Shown in pieces: positions 38,279 to 48,470 of a stretch of 64,000 nucleotides of DNA. The stretch's first letter is position 1, and each line of letters starts with the position of its first letter. Below the pieces are notes generated by a model that worked only from the letters and a program-made list of their open reading frames with translations, searched no databases and had not been told where the DNA came from. Both the position numbers and the translations under genes were made by a program. The stretch comes from Ensifer adhaerens. Lineage in GTDB: Bacteria > Pseudomonadota > Alphaproteobacteria > Rhizobiales > Rhizobiaceae. Location of the stretch: assembly GCF_001270265.1 (NCBI RefSeq), contig NZ_LGAP01000015.1, forward strand, positions 1-64,000, read 5' to 3'.

Positions 38279-41200
38279 ATGAAGTTCAACAAGCTTCGTC
38301 TGCTCGGCTTCAAATCCTTCGTCGAACCCAGCGAATTCATCATCGAGCGCGGCCTGACCGGCATCGTCGGCCCGAACGGCTGCGGCAAGTCGAACCTTGT
38401 CGAGGCATTGCGCTGGGTGATGGGCGAAAACTCCTACAAGAACATGCGCGCGTCCGGCATGGACGACGTGATCTTTTCGGGATCCGGCAATCGCCCGGCG
38501 CGCAACACCGCCGAAGTCGGCCTCTACCTCGACAACAGCGATCGCACCGCGCCGGCCGCCTTCAATGACAGCGACGAAATCCAGGTGACGCGCCGCATCG
38601 AGCGTGAACAGGGCTCGGTTTACAGGATCAACGGCAAGGAAGCGCGCGCCAAGGATGTGCAGCTGCTCTTTGCCGACGCGTCCACCGGCGCCCGCTCGCC
38701 ATCGATGGTCGGCCAGGGCCGCATCGGCGAACTGATTGCGGCCAAGCCGCAGGCCCGACGCCAGCTTCTTGAAGAGGCGGCCGGCATTTCCGGCCTGCAT
38801 TCGCGCCGGCACGAGGCCGAGCTGCGGCTGAAGGCGGCCGAAACCAACCTCGAGCGCCTGGACGATGTCACCTCGCAGCTCGAAAGCCAGATCGAGAGCC
38901 TGAAACGGCAGGCGCGCCAGGCCAATCGCTTCAAGATGCTGTCTGCCGATATCCGCAAGCATGAGGCGATCCTGTTCCACATCCGCTGGGTTCACGCCAA
39001 GGAAGCCGAAGCCGAGGCGACCAGCCAGCTCAACCAGGTGACGGCACTCGTCGCCGAAAAGGCGCAGGCCCAGATGCAGGCCGCCAAGGATCAGGCGATT
39101 TCCAGCCTGAAACTGCCGGAGCTGCGCGAGAACGAGGCGAAACTGGCCGCCGCATTGCAGCGCCTGCAGATCGCCCGTTCGCAGCTGGAGGAAGATGCCG
39201 GCCGCATCCTGCGCCGCCGTGATGAGTTGCAGCGCCGCCTGGCGCAGCTGGCCGAAGATATCGCTCGCGAGGAGCGCCTGGTTGCCGACAATGCCGGCAT
39301 TCTCGCTCGCCTCGACGAAGAAGACGAGGAACTGCGCGAGCTGCTTGCCGAGGCGGACGACCGGGCAAGCGAAGCCCGGGAACGGCTGGAAGAGGCAAAC
39401 GAAAAGCTCTCAGTGAGCGAAGCCGATCTGAGCCGGCTGACGGCCGAGCGTGCCGAGGCACAGGCCGGCCGCAACCAGCTTGAGCGCGCGCTGCGTGATC
39501 TCTCGGAGCGGCAGGCGCGGCTGGCGCGCCAGCTCTCCGATCAGGCCCGTGATCTTGACGAACTCGACCGGCAGATGGCGACGCTGCCCGACCCGCACGA
39601 GAAGCAGGGCCAGGTCGAAGTGGCCGAGGCCGCACTTGAAGACGCCGAGGCGAATGTCGCCGATATCGAAGAAGCCCTTGCCGAAACCCGCCGCGCCGAG
39701 GCTGACGCCCGCCCGCCGGTCGATCGGGCGCGGGCTGTCCTGAACGGCATCGAGACCGAGGCGCGCACGATCCGCCGTATGCTCGAAGCAGCTGGCGGTG
39801 GCGCCTATCCGGCGGTTGTCGAGGAGATGAAGGTTGACCGCGGCTTCGAGACGGCGCTTGGCGCGGCACTTGGCGACGATCTCGATTCGCCGCTCGATAG
39901 CGCCGCACCCGCCCATTGGCGCGCACCGGGCGACCATTCCGGCGATGCCGCCTTGCCGCAAGGGGTGCGTTCGCTGATCGAGCATGTTCGCGCGCCGCAG
40001 GCGTTGACGCGTGCCTTGAGCCAGATCGGCATCGTCGACAGCGAGGCCGAGGCCGAGCGGCTGATGCCGCTGCTGAAGTCCGGCCAGAGCCTGGTGACGA
40101 AGCAGGGCTCCGTCTGGCGGTGGGACGGCCATGTGACCGGTTCCGAGGCGCCGAGTGCGGCTGCACTCAGGCTCGCCCAGAAGCACCGCCTTGCCGAACT
40201 CGACGCGGAGGCGGACGATGCCGGAGAGGCGCTCCGCCGTGCCGAGGCCGATCTTGCCGCTGCCGGCTCGCGCATCCGCGCGGAGGATGAACGGTTAAGG
40301 CTTGCCCGCGACGCCCAGCGCATGATCACCCGCCAGCTTGGCGAAGCGCGTGATGCGCTGGCGGCGGCCGAGCGCGCATCGGGCGATCTGTCGCGCCGCC
40401 GTGCGGTTGTTGCCGAAACCAAGAGCCAGCTCGAAAGCCAGCTCGAAGAGATCGCCGAACAGATCGAGACGGCCAACGACGCCCTTGCCGATGCGCCGGA
40501 TCTTTCCGAGCTCGAGCTGAAGCTGCGCACGCAAACGGCAGATGTCGCGGCCGACCGCGCAGCGGTTGCCGAAAGGCGCGCAGCCCATGATGGTCTTGCG
40601 CGCGAGAACGAAGCGCGCCAGCGCCGCATCACGGCGATATCAGGCGAGCGCCAGACCTGGAAGGCTAGGGCGGCCAGCGCCGAGGAGCATATCGCCACCC
40701 TCAGGGATCGCGAGGCGGAAGCGCGCGACGAGGTCGAAGACCTGATGGATGCGCCCGACGAGTTCGAGGACAAGCGGCGCGCGCTGATGAACGAGTTGCA
40801 GAAGGCCGAGGCTTCACGCCGCGAGGCCGCCGATATCCTGGCCGAGGCCGAGGGTCGCCAGCGTGAGGCCGACCGCATGGCCGCGACCGCGCTCTCGGAG
40901 CTGGCGGAATCGCGTGAAAAGCGTGGCCGCGCCGAGGAGCGGCTGGTGTCGAGCCGCGAGCGCCGCGTCGAGATCGAGGCCCGCATCCAGGAGGCGCTTT
41001 CCTGCGCTCCGCACGAGGTGATGCGGCTGACCGGGCTTGCCGCCGACGAGGCGCTGCCGGATATGCGCAATGTCGAGCGCGAACTGGAACGGCTGAAGAT
41101 CGAGCGCGAGCGCCTTGGCGCCGTCAACCTCCGGGCCGAAGAGGAACAGAAGGAGCTTTCCGAGCGGCTGGCTCTGCTCTTGAAGGAGCGCGACGACGTC

Positions 41201-41740
41201 ATCGAGGCGATCCGCAAGCTGCGCAGCGCCATCCAGAACCTCAATCGTGAGGGTCGAGAGCGGCTGATCGTCGCCTTCGACGTGGTCAACGCCCAGTTCC
41301 AGCGGCTCTTCACCCATCTCTTCGGCGGCGGCACGGCCGAACTGCAACTGATCGAGAGCGACGACCCGCTTGAAGCCGGCCTTGAAATCCTTGCCCGCCC
41401 GCCGGGCAAGAAGCCACAGACCATGACATTGCTGTCGGGCGGCGAACAGGCGCTGACAGCGATGGCGCTGATCTTCGCGGTCTTCCTCACCAATCCGGCG
41501 CCGATCTGCGTGCTCGACGAAGTCGACGCGCCGCTCGACGACCACAATGTCGAGCGCTACTGCAACCTGATGGACGAGATGGCGGCTTCGACCGAAACCC
41601 GCTTCGTCATCATCACCCATAACCCGATCACCATGGCCCGCATGAACCGCCTGTTCGGCGTCACCATGGCGGAGCAGGGCGTGTCCCAGCTCGTTTCCGT
41701 CGACCTGCAGACGGCAGAGCGGCTCCGGGAAGTGGTCTAA
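38279..41740 (+). CDS. smc: Chromosome segregation ATPase SMC
   Basis: 1153 aa, ATG at 38279. Condensin ATPase that organises and segregates chromosomes with ScpA/ScpB. The N-terminal head has Walker A GPNGCGKSN near residue 33. Two long coiled coils surround a hinge (about 500-640), which here contains a HWRAPGDHSGDAALPQG segment. The C-terminal head has the signature LLSGGEQALTAMAL near 1050 and Walker B ICVLDEVDAPLDD near 1079. Its stop is only 4 nt from the stop of the convergent caspase-like gene, with no terminator between them. Confidence 0.97.
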   Translation: MKFNKLRLLGFKSFVEPSEFIIERGLTGIVGPNGCGKSNLVEALRWVMGENSYKNMRASGMDDVIFSGSGNRPARNTAEVGLYLDNSDRTAPAAFNDSDEIQVTRRIEREQGSVYRINGKEARAKDVQLLFADASTGARSPSMVGQGRIGELIAAKPQARRQLLEEAAGISGLHSRRHEAELRLKAAETNLERLDDVTSQLESQIESLKRQARQANRFKMLSADIRKHEAILFHIRWVHAKEAEAEATSQLNQVTALVAEKAQAQMQAAKDQAISSLKLPELRENEAKLAAALQRLQIARSQLEEDAGRILRRRDELQRRLAQLAEDIAREERLVADNAGILARLDEEDEELRELLAEADDRASEARERLEEANEKLSVSEADLSRLTAERAEAQAGRNQLERALRDLSERQARLARQLSDQARDLDELDRQMATLPDPHEKQGQVEVAEAALEDAEANVADIEEALAETRRAEADARPPVDRARAVLNGIETEARTIRRMLEAAGGGAYPAVVEEMKVDRGFETALGAALGDDLDSPLDSAAPAHWRAPGDHSGDAALPQGVRSLIEHVRAPQALTRALSQIGIVDSEAEAERLMPLLKSGQSLVTKQGSVWRWDGHVTGSEAPSAAALRLAQKHRLAELDAEADDAGEALRRAEADLAAAGSRIRAEDERLRLARDAQRMITRQLGEARDALAAAERASGDLSRRRAVVAETKSQLESQLEEIAEQIETANDALADAPDLSELELKLRTQTADVAADRAAVAERRAAHDGLARENEARQRRITAISGERQTWKARAASAEEHIATLRDREAEARDEVEDLMDAPDEFEDKRRALMNELQKAEASRREAADILAEAEGRQREADRMAATALSELAESREKRGRAEERLVSSRERRVEIEARIQEALSCAPHEVMRLTGLAADEALPDMRNVERELERLKIERERLGAVNLRAEEEQKELSERLALLLKERDDVIEAIRKLRSAIQNLNREGRERLIVAFDVVNAQFQRLFTHLFGGGTAELQLIESDDPLEAGLEILARPPGKKPQTMTLLSGGEQALTAMALIFAVFLTNPAPICVLDEVDAPLDDHNVERYCNLMDEMAASTETRFVIITHNPITMARMNRLFGVTMAEQGVSQLVSVDLQTAERLREVV

Positions 41741-41744
41741 GCGG

Positions 41745-43565
41745 TCACTCGAATTCGAGGACGAGACCGCCCGTTCCATCGGTTGACCCCATATCATCCC
41801 ACGTGTCGACGTAAACGGACTTCGTGTCGACTTTGCCCTTTCGATGAGCGTAGTACATGCCGATATCGTCGCCCTTCTTGTTTTCGTTCGGCATGTCGGT
41901 GAACCATTTTGTGTAGGTCAACGCGGTGCCATTGTCCCACCGCCAGCCGCCCTTTGGCTCCCTTCCCTGCGGGTCTTGCGTAAGGCCAATCCAGGGGCCC
42001 ATCTTGTAGCTGACGTTTCCCGAGGGGTCGTAGCCCATCTCGAAGAAGCTCTGGTCGGCATTGAAAAGCGATGCGACGAAGGCGTTCTCTTCCTCTGAGG
42101 AAATCGCTGCAAGGTGCGCCCCGCAGCCGCTGGCGATCCCCCGCGCATACACTGCCAGGATCGTTCCCGTTCGCACGGCAACATAGAGGTGCCCGCCGAA
42201 CACGCCATATACGGTCTCGAAGTGGCGCAGGCAGGTCAGCGCCTCCAGCACGCGCTTGTCGGTTTCAAGGCCTTCGAGGTTGGCGACATCGTAGCGGCGG
42301 GCTTTCGGCGCGCTGTAGATCCCCTCCGAACTGTCATTGACCTTTATGCCGAGGGTTGCTGCCGTGCGCTCGGTGATGAAACCGCTGGCTGGCTGGCGGT
42401 TGGTGCTCTGGAAGAGTTTGATCGCCTCCCGCGTCCGCCCCCCGAAAACGCCATCCGCGACGCCGGCCGCAAATCCCTTGGCGGCGAGTGCCAGCTGGAC
42501 GTTTCGTCGCCGGTCCTTGTCCGGCAGAAGCCGCGCTTCGACCGACTGCGGCAGATGCGACTGGTTGCGTGACCCCGCGGGTTCGATCTGCGCCAGCGTC
42601 TGGCGTCCGAGTTCCGCGTATTCGCCCGTGCGATGCTTTTCGACGAAGAAGTGCCAGATCCGTGGCGTGCCGACCCTGAGGGTCTTCTTGAAATCCTTCT
42701 CCGCCTCGAGTGCCGCGGAGTCCGTCGTTGGCACTGGTAGTACCGGCAGGGCGGCCTGGGCCTGCGGAGCCGCTTCCTCCGGCCCAAAGTAGAATTCCAG
42801 TGACAGGGAGGAAAGGATCTGTGGGGATTGTTTGCCGCCCGTATCCTTGCGCACGTCGCGAACCACCCGCTTGAAGGCAGTGCCGACCTCAAGCCCGGGG
42901 CCGGACAGGTTGGCGATCAGCGCACGGGTGAAGGGCGAATGCCCGTCGGTGCCGTCGGCGGCGACCTGTCCCGGGGCGGCAGCAAAAGCGACCAGCGTGC
43001 CGGCCCCTTGCATTTCTATCGGTGCAAGTCCGCGCGTGGCACCGCCGCGGGTGGCGCCGTCGACGTCGACATTCAGCTTGTTGGCAAGCGGATTGTTGCG
43101 GCAGGCGTCGAGGAATACCAGGGATATCCTTGCGCGCTTTTCGAGTGCGTTGATGATCTCGGACAGTGCCACGGTTTCTGCCGGTACATCGAACTCGCTT
43201 TCAAGCCTGGCATCCGTTCCGATCAGAAAATTCTCGCCGTGGAGCTGCATGCCATGGCCGGCAAAATAGAACAGCGCAATATCCTGCGGCCCGATCTTCC
43301 GGGAGAAGCGTGCGAGCGCCTCGGCAAAGCTCCTTCGATCGGCATTCAGCACGAGATCGGCTTCAAATCCTTGGCGCTGCAGGAAGCCGCTGAAGGCTTC
43401 GGCGTCGCGAGATGCGTTCGGCAAGGTGCCGGCGATCGCGTAATTGCTCATGCCGACGATAAGCGCCAGCCGCTTGCCGACATTGTCGGCGAAGGCGGGG
43501 CCTGCGGCAAACAACAGCACCAGAAACGAAAGCACCGAAAAGCTCAGTTCCGCACGACATTTCAT
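41745..43565 (-). CDS. Secreted caspase-fold / peptidoglycan-binding / C-type-lectin fusion protein
   Basis: 606 aa from the ATG at 43565, with GGAGG 8 nt upstream. A signal peptide covers residues 1-26. A caspase-like C14 domain (about 30-260) follows, with catalytic His104 in YFAGHG and Cys155 in FLDACRNNP. A linker of ~90 aa leads to a peptidoglycan-binding-1 domain (about 351-405: GVADGVFGGRTREAIKLFQ). A C-terminal C-type-lectin-like domain (about 452-606) shows GGHLYVAV, GAHLAAISSEEEN, WIGLTQDP, WRWDNGTALTYTKW and DTWDDMG. It is therefore probably an exported cysteine peptidase held at the cell wall with a ligand-binding tail. The AraC-type gene lies upstream on the same strand. Confidence 0.85.
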   Translation of the reverse strand: MKCRAELSFSVLSFLVLLFAAGPAFADNVGKRLALIVGMSNYAIAGTLPNASRDAEAFSGFLQRQGFEADLVLNADRRSFAEALARFSRKIGPQDIALFYFAGHGMQLHGENFLIGTDARLESEFDVPAETVALSEIINALEKRARISLVFLDACRNNPLANKLNVDVDGATRGGATRGLAPIEMQGAGTLVAFAAAPGQVAADGTDGHSPFTRALIANLSGPGLEVGTAFKRVVRDVRKDTGGKQSPQILSSLSLEFYFGPEEAAPQAQAALPVLPVPTTDSAALEAEKDFKKTLRVGTPRIWHFFVEKHRTGEYAELGRQTLAQIEPAGSRNQSHLPQSVEARLLPDKDRRRNVQLALAAKGFAAGVADGVFGGRTREAIKLFQSTNRQPASGFITERTAATLGIKVNDSSEGIYSAPKARRYDVANLEGLETDKRVLEALTCLRHFETVYGVFGGHLYVAVRTGTILAVYARGIASGCGAHLAAISSEEENAFVASLFNADQSFFEMGYDPSGNVSYKMGPWIGLTQDPQGREPKGGWRWDNGTALTYTKWFTDMPNENKKGDDIGMYYAHRKGKVDTKSVYVDTWDDMGSTDGTGGLVLEFE

Positions 43566-43732
43566 GACATGCCTCCAAGCCTACAGGACTGAAACGGATC
43601 GCCATGATGGGATATTCGTCGATGTGCCCCTCATCGCCTCATAATATTAGATGTTGATGATGGATGCTGCAATGTGCGCCCGTTGACATGCCTCTGAGGC
43701 GTCGGTCGCCATTGCGGCCGATAGGCTCCGCT

Positions 43733-44854
43733 CTATGCCGCTTCCCGAAGATCGGGAATGCCCCGTTGCTCGCGCCAGGACGACGGATTTTTGCCGGTGA
43801 CACGGAGGAACTCGCGGTTGAAGTTCGATTTCGTCAGGAAACCGGCCTCGAAGGCAATCTGCGTGATCGCCTCGTCGGTGGTCAGAAGCAGCCGGCAGGC
43901 TTCCTCGACCCGGTAGTTGTTGACGTATTGCGAGACGCTGATGCCGTGGATCCGGTTGATGGCGTTGGAAATGCGCCGTGCCGGCACGCCGAGTTTGCGC
44001 GCGATCCGCGAGAGGTTGAGCTCGAGATCCTTGTAGAGTGCCTTCTTGCGCATCAGTTCCTGGACTGCGTTGACGACTTCGGCATCTTCTTCCGTTGCGG
44101 CGCGCTCTTGCGGCGAAGGCGCCGCCTCCTGGCGTTCGCTGTCGGTGGATGTGTCGAAGCTGGCGATCGACGCGGCGGTGCCGAGTATCAGCAGGGCGAG
44201 CACGTTGCCGGCCGCCACGATCGCGCCGGAATAGGCGCCACCGTTGCGCATCTGGTCGAAGCCGATGGCGACGTCGCTGAGGGCTGACGCAACGAGCGCC
44301 CATCCCGTGATCTGCAGCGAGCGGTAGGATCGAAGCACGCCGTCGAGGCGCGATGTGACCAGTCCATTCGGTCCCAGCCGCGCAAGCCAGAGCAAGGCAA
44401 TGCCGTAGCTAAGAAAGAACAGGATGATCGCGGTGCCGACCGCATCGCGCCAGGCAAACATCATTGCCCCGACGATGAGCGCGGGCAGGAGGTGCCAGGC
44501 GATCGGCCCCAGGCGTGGCTGACTGTCGCTTGTCAGGCTGCTGAAACATACCCACGCCAAGGCCGCGTTGAAGGTCGCAAGCATCGCCTGTGCCGGCAGA
44601 ATGGCGCGAATATCATAGCCCCACCGGATGCCGATCAGCATGGATTGCAGCGCATAGGCACACACGAGCAGCAGGAACAGGCGCTGCTCGAATGTCATGG
44701 CCTCGTCACGTTGCCAAAGCATCCGGACGATCACGATGAGCAGCAGCAGGGAAACGATGAAGGGTAACGGCACGAACAGCATGAGCAGATGGATTCTTCG
44801 GAGGGGACGGTGGAGACGACAGATGCAGGCGATGATGCCCTTGATCGCGTTCAC
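43733..44854 (-). CDS. Membrane-anchored AraC-family transcriptional regulator
   Basis: 373 aa from a GTG at 44854; an ATG at 44782 (MLFVPLPFIVS) is an alternative giving 349 aa. The first ~225 residues form about seven hydrophobic helices. After a charged linker (SERQEAAPSPQERAATEEDAE) comes a complete AraC double helix-turn-helix (about 270-365: LSRIARKLGVPARRISNAI and ITQIAFEAGFLTKSNFNREFLRVTGKNPSSWRE). It is a one-component sensor-regulator in the inner membrane. It lies 167 nt upstream of the caspase-like gene on the same strand and is divergent from a secreted protein gene. Confidence 0.85.
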   Translation of the reverse strand: MNAIKGIIACICRLHRPLRRIHLLMLFVPLPFIVSLLLLIVIVRMLWQRDEAMTFEQRLFLLLVCAYALQSMLIGIRWGYDIRAILPAQAMLATFNAALAWVCFSSLTSDSQPRLGPIAWHLLPALIVGAMMFAWRDAVGTAIILFFLSYGIALLWLARLGPNGLVTSRLDGVLRSYRSLQITGWALVASALSDVAIGFDQMRNGGAYSGAIVAAGNVLALLILGTAASIASFDTSTDSERQEAAPSPQERAATEEDAEVVNAVQELMRKKALYKDLELNLSRIARKLGVPARRISNAINRIHGISVSQYVNNYRVEEACRLLLTTDEAITQIAFEAGFLTKSNFNREFLRVTGKNPSSWREQRGIPDLREAA

Positions 44855-44952
44855 GGTCGACCCAAAACGCGATCAAGGTCGCCGCTACGTTGGATGTCGG
44901 GCGAGCTATTCCGGTCCGGCGATGGTGCCGGATCGAACGAATGGAGCGTCAC

Positions 44953-45663
44953 ATGCTGATCGCACTGCCAGCAATGGTTCTTGCCCCCATCCTTATCGTC
45001 GCCATGGCGAGTAATGCCGAGACATCGCCGACTGAGATCGATATCGCCGGCGTCACGGCAATTGTCGCGAGGGGGGAGGCAAGCACAATCGAACTCACCA
45101 GCAATGAGGCTTTGCCCTACAGGGCTTCTGCCCGCAGCCACCGTTCCGGTTGGTTTGCACCCTTCTATTCCAGTTGGTTCTATAGCGACTGCGTAACGGA
45201 CAGCCGGATGCGTGTCGAAGTTTCGACCCTTTACATCGATGTGGCGGCACCGTCCTGGCCGGAACTGGAGGACTGCAAGGTCGAGCTTCACGCCAACCTG
45301 AAAAAAGGAGCAACGGTCTCGATCGAGCAACCGGCATTCCAGGCGAGGCTTGACGGTGAGTTTTCGGCGGTTGTCCTCAAAGGCAAGGCGGCAGACGTTT
45401 CGATCGAGGGGCATGTCGGACAGGCCAGGCTCGATGTAGACGCCCTGCGAGCGCGGCTGATCTATGAAAAGACGCAGCAGTCCGAGACCGTGGAGATCTC
45501 CGGAAAGGCACTCGACATTCATCTTGGCTTCGATACGGCAAGTTTCATCGATTATCAGGTGGCGGCCACGGCCTCCTGGGTCGACAGTTCGCGAACGGCG
45601 ATCCCCGGTGCCAAGCCACAAGTTCGCATCAGCGGGGAGATGGTGCGTGCGACGATCCGCTGA
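44953..45663 (+). CDS. Secreted protein of unknown family
   Basis: 236 aa from the ATG at 44953, preceded by GGAG; the ATG at 44941 is also possible. A signal sequence (about 1-22) is followed by an all-beta mature part. Repeating short strands (VSIEQPAFQARLDGEFSAVV, VSIEGHVGQARLDVDALRA, VEISGKALDIHL) suggest a beta-solenoid such as in DUF4097-type proteins. Two cysteines (YSDCVTD, LEDCKVE) could form a disulfide. I do not recognise the family. It shares a ~100-nt divergent promoter region with the membrane AraC regulator, which may control it. Confidence 0.65.
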   Translation: MLIALPAMVLAPILIVAMASNAETSPTEIDIAGVTAIVARGEASTIELTSNEALPYRASARSHRSGWFAPFYSSWFYSDCVTDSRMRVEVSTLYIDVAAPSWPELEDCKVELHANLKKGATVSIEQPAFQARLDGEFSAVVLKGKAADVSIEGHVGQARLDVDALRARLIYEKTQQSETVEISGKALDIHLGFDTASFIDYQVAATASWVDSSRTAIPGAKPQVRISGEMVRATIR

Positions 45664-45803: not shown

Positions 45804-48470
45804 ATGAGGAAATGGGTTTACACCTTCGGTGGGGGCAAGGCCGAAGGGCGTGCTGGTGATCGTGACCGGCTGGGCGGCAAGGGTGCGAACCTTGCCGAAA
45901 TGTGCAGTCTCGGCCTGCCGGTGCCGCCGGGATTGACCATCATCACCGATGCCTGCAACAGCTATTTCGACAACGGCCGCGAAATGCCGGAGGGCCTGCA
46001 CGATCAGGTGCGTGAAGGCATTCGCCGGATGGAGGAGGTCACCGGCCGAATCTTCGGCGACACCAACCGTCCGCTGCTGCTTTCCGTGCGTTCGGGCGCC
46101 CGCGCCTCGATGCCGGGCATGATGGACACGGTTTTGAATCTTGGCCTCAACGACCAATCGGTGCATGCGCTCGGTCACGACGCCGGCGATGCGCGCTTTG
46201 CCTGGGATAGCTACCGCCGCTTCATCCAGATGTATGGCGACGTCGTCATGGGCGTCGACCATGATGTGTTCGAAGAGATCCTGGAAGACGAGAAGGCCCG
46301 CCTCGGCCACGAGCAAGATCCCGAGCTCTCCGCGGTCGAATGGCAGCATGTCATCAGCCGCTACAAGGAAGCGATCGAGGAAGCGCTCGGCGAGCCGTTT
46401 CCGCAGGATCCGGAAATCCAGCTCTGGGGCGCCATCGGCGCCGTCTTCTCCAGCTGGATGAACCCGCGCGCCATCACCTACCGCCACCTGCACAGCATCC
46501 CGGCGGCCTGGGGCACGGCGGTCAACGTCCAGGCGATGGTCTTCGGCAATCTCGGCAATTCGTCGGCAACCGGCGTCGCGTTTACCCGCAATCCGTCGAC
46601 AGGAGAAAATGAGCTTTACGGCGAGTTCCTCGTCAATGCGCAGGGTGAGGACGTCGTTGCCGGCATCCGCACGCCGCAAAACATCACCGAGGCTGCCCGT
46701 ATCGCATCCGGCTCCGACAAGCCGTCGCTCGAAAAGTTGATGCCGGAGGCCTTCGCCGAATTCCGCGCGATCTGCGACAAGCTCGAGCACCACTATCGCG
46801 ACATGCAGGATCTCGAATTCACCATCGAGCGCGGCACCCTCTGGATGCTGCAGACACGCTCCGGCAAGCGCACGGCCAAGGCAGCCCTGAAGATAGCCGT
46901 CGACATGGCGGAGGAGGGACTGGTCTCAAAGAACGAGGCGGTTGCCCGCATCGATCCGGCTTCGCTCGACCAGTTGCTGCACCCGACGATCGATCCGCAT
47001 GCGCGCCGCGATATCATCGGCTCCGGCCTGCCGGCTTCGCCGGGAGCTGCGACCGGCGAGATCGTGTTCACCTCGGAAGAAGCCGTTCAGGCTGACAAGG
47101 AAGGCCGCAAGGTCATTCTCGTGCGCATCGAGACCAGCCCGGAAGACATCCACGGCATGCACGCCGCCGAAGGCATCCTGACGACGCGCGGCGGCATGAC
47201 CAGCCACGCCGCGGTGGTGGCGCGCGGCATGGGCACCCCTTGCGTCTCCGGTGCCGGCAGCATCCGCGTCGATCCGCGCAACGAGTTGCTGATCACCCCC
47301 AGCGTGACGCTGAAGAAGGGCGATATCATCACCATCGACGGCTCGTCCGGCCAGGTGCTGAAAGGCGTGATCGCCATGCTTCAGCCGGAACTGTCGGGCG
47401 ACTTTGGAAAGATCATGGCCTGGGCGGACGCCAGCCGCCGCATGACCGTGCGCACCAACGCCGAAACGCCGGCCGATGCGCGTGCCGCCCGCTCCTTCGG
47501 TGCCGAGGGCATCGGCCTTTGCCGTACCGAGCACATGTTCTTCGAGGACGGCCGCATCAATGTCATGCGCGAGATGATTCTGGCGGAAGACGAGGCTGGC
47601 CGGCGGCTGGCGCTTGCCAAGCTGCTGCCGATGCAGCGCTCGGACTTCGTAGAGCTCTTTTCCATCATGCATGGGCTGCCGGTGACGATCCGTCTGCTTG
47701 ACCCGCCGTTGCACGAATTCCTGCCGAAGACCGACGAGGAGATCGCCGATGTCGCCGGTGTCTTGTCGCTTGATCCATCCGCCCTGCGCCAGCGTGTCGA
47801 CCATTTGCACGAGTTCAACCCGATGCTCGGCCACCGCGGCTGCCGATTGGCCATTTCCTATCCGGAGATCGCCGAGATGCAGGCCCGCGCGATCTTCGAG
47901 GCGGCGGTCGAAGCCGCGCGCGAAACCGGTGCTCCTGTCGTGCCTGAAATCATGGTGCCGCTCGTCGGCCTGCGCGCCGAACTCGACTACGTCAAGGAGC
48001 GCATCGATGCGGTGGCAAAGGCGGTCATCGGCGAAGCCGGCATCGACATCGACTATCTCGTCGGTACGATGATCGAGCTGCCGCGCGCGGCACTTCGCGC
48101 CGATGTGATCGCGGAAGCAGCCGACTTCTTCTCGTTTGGTACCAACGACCTGACACAGACGACGTTCGGCATTTCGCGCGATGACGCCTCGCAGTTTCTG
48201 GCGACTTACCAGCAGAAGGGCATCATCGATCAGGACCCCTTCGTCTCGCTCGACTTCGATGGCGTCGGCGAACTGATCCAGATTGCTGCGGAGCGTGGGC
48301 GTCGGACCAAGAACGGACTGAAACTCGGCATCTGCGGCGAGCATGGCGGCGATCCGGCCTCGATCCGCTTCTGTGAAGAAACAGGTCTCGACTATGTCTC
48401 CTGTTCGCCCTTCCGCGTGCCGATCGCCCGGCTGGCCGCCGCGCAGGCGGCGATCAACGGCAAGGCGTAA
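45804..48470 (+). CDS. ppdK: Pyruvate, phosphate dikinase
   Basis: 888 aa, ATG at 45804. Interconverts pyruvate, ATP and phosphate with PEP, AMP and PPi. The N-terminal ATP-grasp domain shows GGKGANLAEMCSLGLPVPPG and SVRSGARASMPGMMDTVLN. The phosphohistidine is H468 in TRGGMTSHAAVVARGMGTPCVSG, and the C-terminal TIM barrel carries the acid/base Cys844 in LGICGEHGGDP. Length is normal. Rhizobial PPDK contributes to gluconeogenesis from dicarboxylates. It is followed by a family-B repeat, not an obvious terminator. Confidence 0.97.
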   Translation: MRKWVYTFGGGKAEGRAGDRDRLGGKGANLAEMCSLGLPVPPGLTIITDACNSYFDNGREMPEGLHDQVREGIRRMEEVTGRIFGDTNRPLLLSVRSGARASMPGMMDTVLNLGLNDQSVHALGHDAGDARFAWDSYRRFIQMYGDVVMGVDHDVFEEILEDEKARLGHEQDPELSAVEWQHVISRYKEAIEEALGEPFPQDPEIQLWGAIGAVFSSWMNPRAITYRHLHSIPAAWGTAVNVQAMVFGNLGNSSATGVAFTRNPSTGENELYGEFLVNAQGEDVVAGIRTPQNITEAARIASGSDKPSLEKLMPEAFAEFRAICDKLEHHYRDMQDLEFTIERGTLWMLQTRSGKRTAKAALKIAVDMAEEGLVSKNEAVARIDPASLDQLLHPTIDPHARRDIIGSGLPASPGAATGEIVFTSEEAVQADKEGRKVILVRIETSPEDIHGMHAAEGILTTRGGMTSHAAVVARGMGTPCVSGAGSIRVDPRNELLITPSVTLKKGDIITIDGSSGQVLKGVIAMLQPELSGDFGKIMAWADASRRMTVRTNAETPADARAARSFGAEGIGLCRTEHMFFEDGRINVMREMILAEDEAGRRLALAKLLPMQRSDFVELFSIMHGLPVTIRLLDPPLHEFLPKTDEEIADVAGVLSLDPSALRQRVDHLHEFNPMLGHRGCRLAISYPEIAEMQARAIFEAAVEAARETGAPVVPEIMVPLVGLRAELDYVKERIDAVAKAVIGEAGIDIDYLVGTMIELPRAALRADVIAEAADFFSFGTNDLTQTTFGISRDDASQFLATYQQKGIIDQDPFVSLDFDGVGELIQIAAERGRRTKNGLKLGICGEHGGDPASIRFCEETGLDYVSCSPFRVPIARLAAAQAAINGKA

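What the first reader, a model, noticed from the sequence alone, without database searches (positions are those of the whole stretch)
41745..45663. Exported caspase-fold / peptidoglycan-binding / C-type-lectin protein with a membrane AraC regulator
One 606-aa protein joins a signal peptide, a caspase-type peptidase with intact His104/Cys155, a peptidoglycan-binding domain and a C-terminal C-type-lectin-like domain. Prokaryotic caspase homologues are usually cytoplasmic or tied to other sensor domains; this combination implies a cell-wall-tethered protease that reads a ligand. Directly upstream on the same strand is a seven-helix membrane AraC regulator, and divergent from that is a secreted beta-rich protein of unknown family. 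The three may form a surface sensing or cell-death module. The grouping is inference from proximity.
Basis: partly seen in the sequence, partly recalled or inferred. Interest (0 to 1): 0.7.

Follow-up and report, generated by a model that had tools for sequence, protein, structure and literature searches.

The report
Exported caspase-like protease with swappable lectin
Soil bacteria related to Ensifer carry an exported protein that joins a caspase-like protease, a cell-wall-binding part and a lectin-fold "reader"; in some genomes two copies have nearly the same protease half but different reader halves, which looks like one protease fitted with different sensors.

Summary
Window 41745-43565 (-) encodes a 606-aa protein with a signal-peptide-like N-terminus, caspase domain (intact His104/Cys155), peptidoglycan-binding domain and C-type-lectin-fold domain. 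The proposed three-gene module is not supported. The membrane AraC gene and the divergent secreted gene form their own pair, found in 6 of 16 genus genomes; 2 of those 6 keep an intact caspase gene at the slot, and 8 genomes have it without the pair. In the 4 other-genus loci inspected the pair has no caspase gene nearby.

Unexpected: the gene sits in an old smc-ppdK slot with tandem duplication, decay and loss, and it is a mosaic. In 3 of 6 genomes with several copies (3 of 10 within-genome pairs) the caspase-coding half is 97-98% identical in DNA while the C-terminal half is strongly diverged, also at synonymous sites. The lectin halves fall into discrete types that the caspase tree does not follow.

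Best reading: an envelope, peptidoglycan-tethered protease gated by a ligand reader, diversified by recombination between copies. Architecture and mosaicism are shown; ligand, substrate and role are inferred. New variant of a known kind.

The parts
41745..43565 (-). Gene for the 606-aa exported caspase / peptidoglycan-binding / C-type-lectin-fold protein
43485..43565 (-). Signal-peptide-like N-terminus, about residues 1-27
   Evidence: one hydrophobic segment 3-21; cleavage site judged by eye
42789..43475 (-). Caspase (Peptidase_C14) domain, residues 31-259, His104/Cys155 intact; the part homogenised between paralogues in some relatives
42351..42515 (-). PG_binding_1 domain, residues 351-405
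41748..42215 (-). C-type-lectin-fold domain, residues 451-606 (type A of the six types named in this study)
43566..43695 (-). Upstream stretch with blocks conserved in 9 genomes, 7 of them lacking the AraC gene at the slot: putative own promoter region
   Evidence: no sigma-70 consensus match was found
43733..44854 (-). Membrane AraC-type regulator (HTH_18); belongs with the next gene, not with the caspase gene
44890..45663 (+). Secreted-looking protein without a known family, divergent partner of the AraC gene
38279..41740 (+). smc: constant flank of the slot
45804..48470 (+). ppdK (pyruvate phosphate dikinase): constant flank of the slot

Best explanation
The gene encodes an envelope-located, ligand-gated protease. 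Shown: a caspase domain with an intact catalytic dyad, a peptidoglycan-binding domain and a C-type-lectin-fold domain in one chain with a signal-like N-terminus; several discrete types of the lectin half, most of them found in several species; and caspase halves homogenised between copies in three genomes. Inferred: the signal peptide takes it to the periplasm; the peptidoglycan-binding domain holds it at the wall; the lectin domain binds a glycan or protein ligand and so places or unlocks the caspase domain, which then cleaves an envelope protein, probably after Arg or Lys as in metacaspases and paracaspases (recalled). Different lectin types would give different ligand specificities to one constant protease. 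The frequent duplication, decay and loss at an otherwise fixed chromosomal slot suggest a non-essential function under changing selection, such as sensing of phages, competitors or host glycans, rather than housekeeping. The AraC gene and the secreted-protein gene are a separate two-gene unit.
For: Domains. Catalytic dyad. Lectin fold; profile hits to C-type lectins in the PDB. Slot: an intact copy between smc and ppdK in 10 of 16 genus genomes, broken in 1, remnants in 3, none seen in 2; the same slot in Rhizobium herbae (L107) and in L110 and, split over two frames, in G057. Mosaicism: fourfold-degenerate differences, caspase against rest, are 6/139 vs 57/103 (G155, p 4e-20), 13/137 vs 46/117 (G158, 2e-8) and 11/137 vs 61/114 (G163, copies on two contigs, 7e-16); the ortholog control G155a/G163 is 44/131 vs 64/164 (p 0.39); ppdK differs between species at 21-38% in 8 of 9 pairs and 13% in the close pair G000/G161 (near-identical counts). 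Main tract ends at aa 260-270. Trees: types A-E are each one clade in the lectin tree; AU tests reject types A (3e-5) and B (8e-48) as clades in the caspase tree and reject the three same-genome pairs as clades in the lectin tree (4e-10 to 1e-83). Purifying selection: type A orthologs G155a/G163 keep 92% aa identity in the lectin domain with 33% fourfold differences.
Against: No ligand, substrate, localisation or expression data. Recent homogenisation is clear in only 3 of 10 within-genome pairs (3 of 6 genomes). The other seven have caspase halves 36-58% different at fourfold sites: G151a/b 44/121, G151a/c3 52/96, G151b/c3 54/93, G159a/b 47/124, G159b/c 52/116, G159a/c 55/115, G164/c35 52/118. 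In the caspase tree the lectin-type labels are still clustered more than in shuffles (9 changes against a shuffled mean of 13.4, as low in 1 of 200), so exchange is not free. Types were named by eye from the alignment and the three pairs were chosen after seeing their identity, so the AU p-values are not blind. The tract may end at the domain border only because homology ends there; G158 has a second, shorter tract at aa 319-358 (88.5%). The lectin domain has only Cys445 and Cys481, and the calcium-site-like residues are partial (MPN, WDD) and gone in type E, so sugar binding is not assured. The full-length model is weak (pLDDT 68.7, pTM 0.46, low around the active site). Within a type the lectin domain is not hypervariable.
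Confidence: 0.45

Rival explanations
1. Housekeeping periplasmic processing protease: the lectin-fold domain is a fixed substrate-docking or structural part and the types are ordinary paralogues.
For: Lectin domain is under purifying selection within a type; position between smc and ppdK is shared between genera; type labels remain partly clustered in the caspase tree.
Against: Gene broken, reduced to a remnant or not seen at the slot in 6 of 16 genus genomes, and present in up to 2 intact slot copies plus copies elsewhere in others; lectin halves disagree with caspase halves in ancestry.
Confidence: 0.25
2. Three-gene surface sensing or cell-death module controlled by the membrane AraC regulator.
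For: Adjacency and same strand in the window and in G156.
Against: Pair and caspase gene come and go independently: intact caspase with 2 of 6 pairs, and 8 genomes with it but no pair; no nearby caspase in the 4 other-genus loci inspected; own conserved upstream blocks.
Confidence: 0.05
3. Exported effector acting on other cells or on a host: the lectin domain aims it and the caspase domain is the active part.
For: Signal-like N-terminus and lectin fold; multiple reader types.
Against: No secretion-system or immunity gene was recognised among the immediate window neighbours scanned; a peptidoglycan-binding domain argues for retention at the wall.
Confidence: 0.15
4. Variable protein of a diversity-generating retroelement.
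For: C-type-lectin fold at the C-terminus joined to a caspase domain, as in cyanobacterial examples (PMC7517822, passages).
Against: The 2 reverse transcriptase matches in the genome lie on other contigs (C44, C56; the window is on C7); variation is between discrete types, with high identity within a type.
Confidence: 0.02

Closest known systems
Orthocaspases / bacterial metacaspase homologues (Pfam Peptidase_C14), including those with a peptidoglycan-binding domain (11 of 671 in PMC3501461, passages read)
   Same: Caspase p20-like domain with a His/Cys dyad; N-terminal signal-like helix and peptidoglycan-binding domain are described for some.
   Different: The passages read name no lectin domain ('lectin' occurs 0 times in the main text); a recombination mosaic is not described in the passages read.
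Cyanobacterial DGR variable proteins and paralogues with orthocaspase and CLec domains (PMC7517822, passages read)
   Same: Caspase-type domain joined to a C-terminal C-type-lectin fold.
   Different: No reverse transcriptase match on the window's contig; signal-like N-terminus and wall-binding domain here; diversity as discrete types exchanged between copies.
Conflict systems with trypsin- or caspase-type effectors and CLec sensors (PMC10907252, passages read; PMC7159879 seen as search listing and start of abstract only)
   Same: Sensor plus protease effector logic.
   Different: No STAND, MoxR or adapter partner recognised next to the gene; the only PADLOC match is a generic caspase model (E 4e-12).
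MALT1 paracaspase (PDB sequence match)
   Same: Residues 32-158 align with MALT1, including LDACR/LDMCR around the catalytic Cys (E 9e-4).
   Different: Cytosolic eukaryotic signalling protein with other partner domains (recalled).
Animal C-type lectin domains (CD23, mannose receptor, RegIII)
   Same: Fold.
   Different: Only two cysteines in the domain; calcium-site-like motifs only partial.

Membership tests
Bacterial caspase homologue (Peptidase_C14 / orthocaspase) | Caspase p20-like domain over family cut-off | tested here: met
   PF00656, 123.9 bits against a cut-off of 21.4, E 1e-35
Bacterial caspase homologue (Peptidase_C14 / orthocaspase) | Catalytic His/Cys dyad | tested here: met
   H104 and C155 invariant in 21 of 21
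Bacterial caspase homologue (Peptidase_C14 / orthocaspase) | Cleavage after Arg/Lys | not testable with these tools
   Asp153, two residues before Cys155, aligns with the Asp of MALT1 LDMC; the role of that Asp in P1 choice is recalled
NCBIfam caspase, EACC1-associated type | Score over curated cut-off | tested here: not met
   59.7 bits against a cut-off of 140
C-type lectin-like domain | C-type lectin fold | tested here: met
   AlphaFold2 pLDDT 87.2; Foldseek best E 1.1e-6, probability 1.00
C-type lectin-like domain | Canonical disulfides | tested here: not met
   Only Cys445 and Cys481 in the C-terminal part, both conserved in 23 of 23 rows; the canonical two-disulfide pattern is recalled
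C-type lectin-like domain | Calcium/sugar site (EPN or QPD, WND) | tested here: inconclusive
   MPN and WDD in the window protein; absent in 3 of 3 type E rows; motif roles recalled
DGR variable protein | Reverse transcriptase near the gene | tested here: not met
   RVT_1 matches only on contigs C44 and C56, window on C7
DGR variable protein | Template repeat / variable repeat pair | not tested
   No repeat search was run for this
NTP-dependent conflict system | STAND/MoxR NTPase or effector-associated adapter partner next to the gene | tested here: not met
   Neighbours scanned are a thioredoxin-like protein, SMC, AraC, a secreted protein without family, and PPDK; partners elsewhere in the genome were not searched for
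AraC-controlled three-gene module | The three genes are kept together | tested here: not met

The most novel reading that the evidence does not exclude
A bacterial family of wall-tethered receptor-proteases in which a constant caspase module is kept uniform between copies by gene conversion, in some genomes, while several old lectin-fold readers are retained and exchanged between copies and replicons: an envelope surveillance or recognition system diversified by recombination instead of by a retroelement.
Probability: 0.3. Interest if true: 0.8.

Novelty: new variant of a known kind. Interest (0 to 1): 0.55.

Why it matters
What bacterial caspase homologues do is largely open, and exported ones have been noticed in surveys. 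Here nature has set up a comparison: nearly the same caspase half, in one genome, joined to different reader halves. Comparing these natural copies would show whether a lectin-fold domain decides when and where a bacterial caspase acts. It would also connect caspase plus lectin-fold designs outside the cytoplasm with the retroelement-diversified ones in multicellular bacteria.

Tried and rejected
Rejected: the three-gene module; a retroelement target; hypervariability of the lectin domain (identity within type A is about as high as in the caspase domain); whole-gene recent duplication followed by fast change of the C-terminal half (synonymous sites are already strongly diverged there, and the lectin types group across species).

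Led nowhere: a sigma-70 and terminator scan of 43400-45000 found 0 sites of each kind. Neighbours of two copies outside the slot (L076, L077; those of L078 were not scanned) and of two Rhizobium loci (L106, L108) gave no common partner: 10 proteins scanned, 7 with a family hit; L076 lies near a TraD-like gene. The three copies in G931, a genome of another family of the class, are near-full-length matches but only 30.9-35.1% identical to the window protein, with Lectin_C over cut-off in 2 of 3. The script's motif filter kept only one of them, beside another caspase protein, so homogenisation was not tested there. Paper searches listed no description of this architecture in Rhizobiaceae. I read passages only of PMC3501461, PMC10907252, PMC7517822, PMC2275737 (its one 'caspase' is a reference title) and PMC4550343 (one passing mention of peptidase C14); the rest were seen as listings. 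(second structural aligner) did not run, and no fold search was made with the full-length model.
Full report
WHAT IS THERE. The protein is one of 5 caspase-family matches in its own genome and carries the only Lectin_C match. Sequence comparison with solved structures gives MALT1 for the caspase part and C-type lectins for the C-terminus. The isolated C-terminal 187 residues, predicted from 14 aligned sequences, form a confident model (pLDDT 87.2) whose 50 shown PDB matches are dominated by C-type lectin domains. The full-length model is weak (pLDDT 68.7, pTM 0.46, low around the active site), so the arrangement of the domains is not known.

WHERE IT SITS. In the 16 genomes of the genus, smc and ppdK bracket one slot. 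An intact caspase-lectin gene is in the slot in 10 of 16 (G000, G151, G152, G155, G156, G158, G159, G160, G163, G164). It is broken in G153, reduced to a remnant in G154, G157 and G162, and not seen in G071 and G161. Four genomes have two intact copies there (G151, G155, G158, G159); G159 has a broken copy between its two. Further full copies lie on other contigs in G163, G151 and G164, and fragments in G156. Matching contig lengths and record titles indicate that the genus includes Ensifer adhaerens and Ensifer sp. strains. The slot is older than the genus: Rhizobium herbae (L107) and a Rhizobiales isolate (L110) have the gene between smc and ppdK, and G057 has a copy split over two frames there. 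Three other Rhizobium loci (L105, L106, L108) have the gene without smc or ppdK in the 12.6 kb held. Of 19 loci found in named genomes, 10 carry a full caspase-lectin gene, 1 is cut by the contig end, 1 is broken, 1 is a remnant, and 6 are lectin-like stretches without a match to the caspase part.

HOW COMMON IT IS. Lectin_C occurs in 15 of 394 genomes sampled from the family. The lectin-half profile found 5 of 397 genomes sampled from the order. Of the four other than the window's, two (G441, G470) are caspase plus peptidoglycan-binding proteins by Pfam, without Lectin_C at E 0.01; one (G029) has no match to the caspase part, and one (G581) gave no match to the window protein. In the class, 34 of 385 genomes sampled match the family profile at 1e-60 (at most 3 candidates scored per genome); among the listed matches only the window's own protein and three in G931, within about 25 kb, span nearly the whole length. 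Lectin_C is over cut-off in 2 of those 3.

THE AraC PAIR IS SEPARATE. The AraC gene (86% identity or more) and the secreted-protein gene occur in exactly the same 6 of 16 genomes, between the caspase position and ppdK. Only G000 and G156 of these have an intact caspase gene there; G154, G157 and G162 have remnants and G161 none. Eight genomes have the caspase gene without the pair. The secreted protein occurs in 37 of 394 family genomes, 35 of them outside the genus; the four other-genus loci that I inspected all have an AraC homologue (51-60% identity) divergent from it and no caspase match within about 3.7 kb. The 130 bases before the caspase start contain blocks conserved in 9 genomes aligned, 7 without the AraC gene at the slot. 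This suggests a promoter of its own, although no sigma-70 consensus was found.

THE MOSAIC. Copies within one genome can share nearly the same caspase half and differ elsewhere. In G155 the two slot copies are 98.1% identical in DNA from aa 29 to 260; in G158 97.3% from aa 25 to 268, with a second shorter stretch of 88.5% at aa 319-358; in G163, where the copies are on two contigs, 97.1% from 97 bases upstream to aa 270. Outside, identity falls to about 30-90% in 60-base windows. Fourfold-degenerate sites, which do not depend on the amino acid, show the same break: 6/139 against 57/103, 13/137 against 46/117, 11/137 against 61/114. The ppdK background between species is 21-38% for 8 of the 9 pairs computed and 13% for the close pair G000/G161. 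So I infer that these caspase halves were made alike after the species separated and that the C-terminal halves are older. The window gene and its G156 counterpart show a break between species: caspase 39/128, rest 73/107 (p 1e-8), with ppdK at 21%.

CONTROLS AND MISSES. The ortholog pair G155a/G163 shows no break (p 0.39) and G000/G164 a weak one in the other direction (59/124 vs 57/163, p 0.04). In all, 10 within-genome pairs from 6 genomes were counted. Seven show no recent homogenisation, with caspase halves 36-58% different: G151a/b 44/121 vs 38/62 (p 0.002, two patches of higher identity), G151a/c3 52/96 vs 53/87, G151b/c3 54/93 vs 47/61, G159a/b 47/124 vs 24/51, G159b/c 52/116 vs 12/17, G159a/c 55/115 vs 30/62, G164/c35 52/118 vs 51/72 (p 3e-4). 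For the G159 middle copy only the open first part was used.

TREES (23 rows). In the lectin tree the types A to E, which I had assigned by eye from the alignment, are each one clade with 100% bootstrap support; type F is one row. In the caspase tree A needs 7 changes, B 3, C 2 and E 2, and only D is one clade; the G155, G158 and G163 pairs are sisters across types, the G151, G159 and G164 copies are not supported as sisters. The labels together need 9 changes on the caspase tree against a shuffled mean of 13.4, as low in 1 of 200 shuffles, so they are not free of ancestry. AU tests reject A and B as clades in the caspase tree (p 3e-5, 8e-48) and reject the three same-genome pairs as clades in the lectin tree (p 4e-10, 1e-83, 3e-35); these groups were not named blind. 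Tract ends near the domain border may reflect where homology ends as well as selection.

HOW IT MOST LIKELY WORKS. Shown: the parts, their conservation, and the exchange in some lineages. Inferred: export to the periplasm, anchoring to the wall, ligand binding by the lectin fold, and ligand-controlled cleavage by the caspase domain. The lectin part has only two cysteines, and the calcium-site-like motifs are partial (MPN, WDD) and absent in type E, so the ligand need not be a sugar. Frequent gain and loss at a fixed place speaks against an essential role and for interaction with a changing partner. This last step is the weakest.

RELATION TO KNOWN THINGS. A survey of 671 bacterial caspase homologues reports 11 with a peptidoglycan-binding domain and 33 with an FGE-sulfatase domain and does not mention lectins in its main text (PMC3501461, passages). 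Caspase plus C-type-lectin-fold proteins are known as targets, or paralogues of targets, of retroelements in cyanobacteria (PMC7517822, passages), and lectin-fold sensors with caspase-like effectors occur in conflict systems (PMC10907252, passages). The present family shares the effector-plus-reader idea, but it has a signal-like N-terminus, carries a wall-binding domain, has no reverse transcriptase match on its contig, and shows exchange by recombination. My paper searches did not find this family described; the library holds open-licence papers only, and most hits were seen as listings.

Noticed in passing
window 43733-45663: The membrane AraC gene and the divergent secreted-protein gene are a conserved pair of their own: together in 6 of 6 genus genomes that have either close homologue, and in 4 of 4 other-genus loci inspected; the secreted protein has no Pfam name and occurs in 37 of 394 family genomes.
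   Followed up: partly
L136 and L137 (G931): A genome of another family in the class has three near-full-length matches to this protein within about 25 kb, plus further caspase-domain matches.
   Followed up: partly
L038-L040, L042, L043 (G012): A genome of the same family has three divergent caspase-lectin proteins and 10 matches to the window protein in all.
   Followed up: no
L044, L045, L046: Other caspase-family proteins of the window's genome: one with a weak peptidoglycan-binding match (E 0.004, under the curated cut-off), one with Sel1 repeats and a peptidoglycan-binding domain, and two neighbouring caspase matches at C1:575567-577833.
   Followed up: partly
L123 (G029): A relative of the lectin half in a 412-aa frame whose start looks like an adenylate-cyclase-type protein (by eye), with no match to the caspase part.
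   Followed up: no
L076 (G163): The second-contig copy whose caspase half matches the slot copy lies near a TraD-like conjugation gene, hinting at exchange between chromosome and a plasmid.
   Followed up: no
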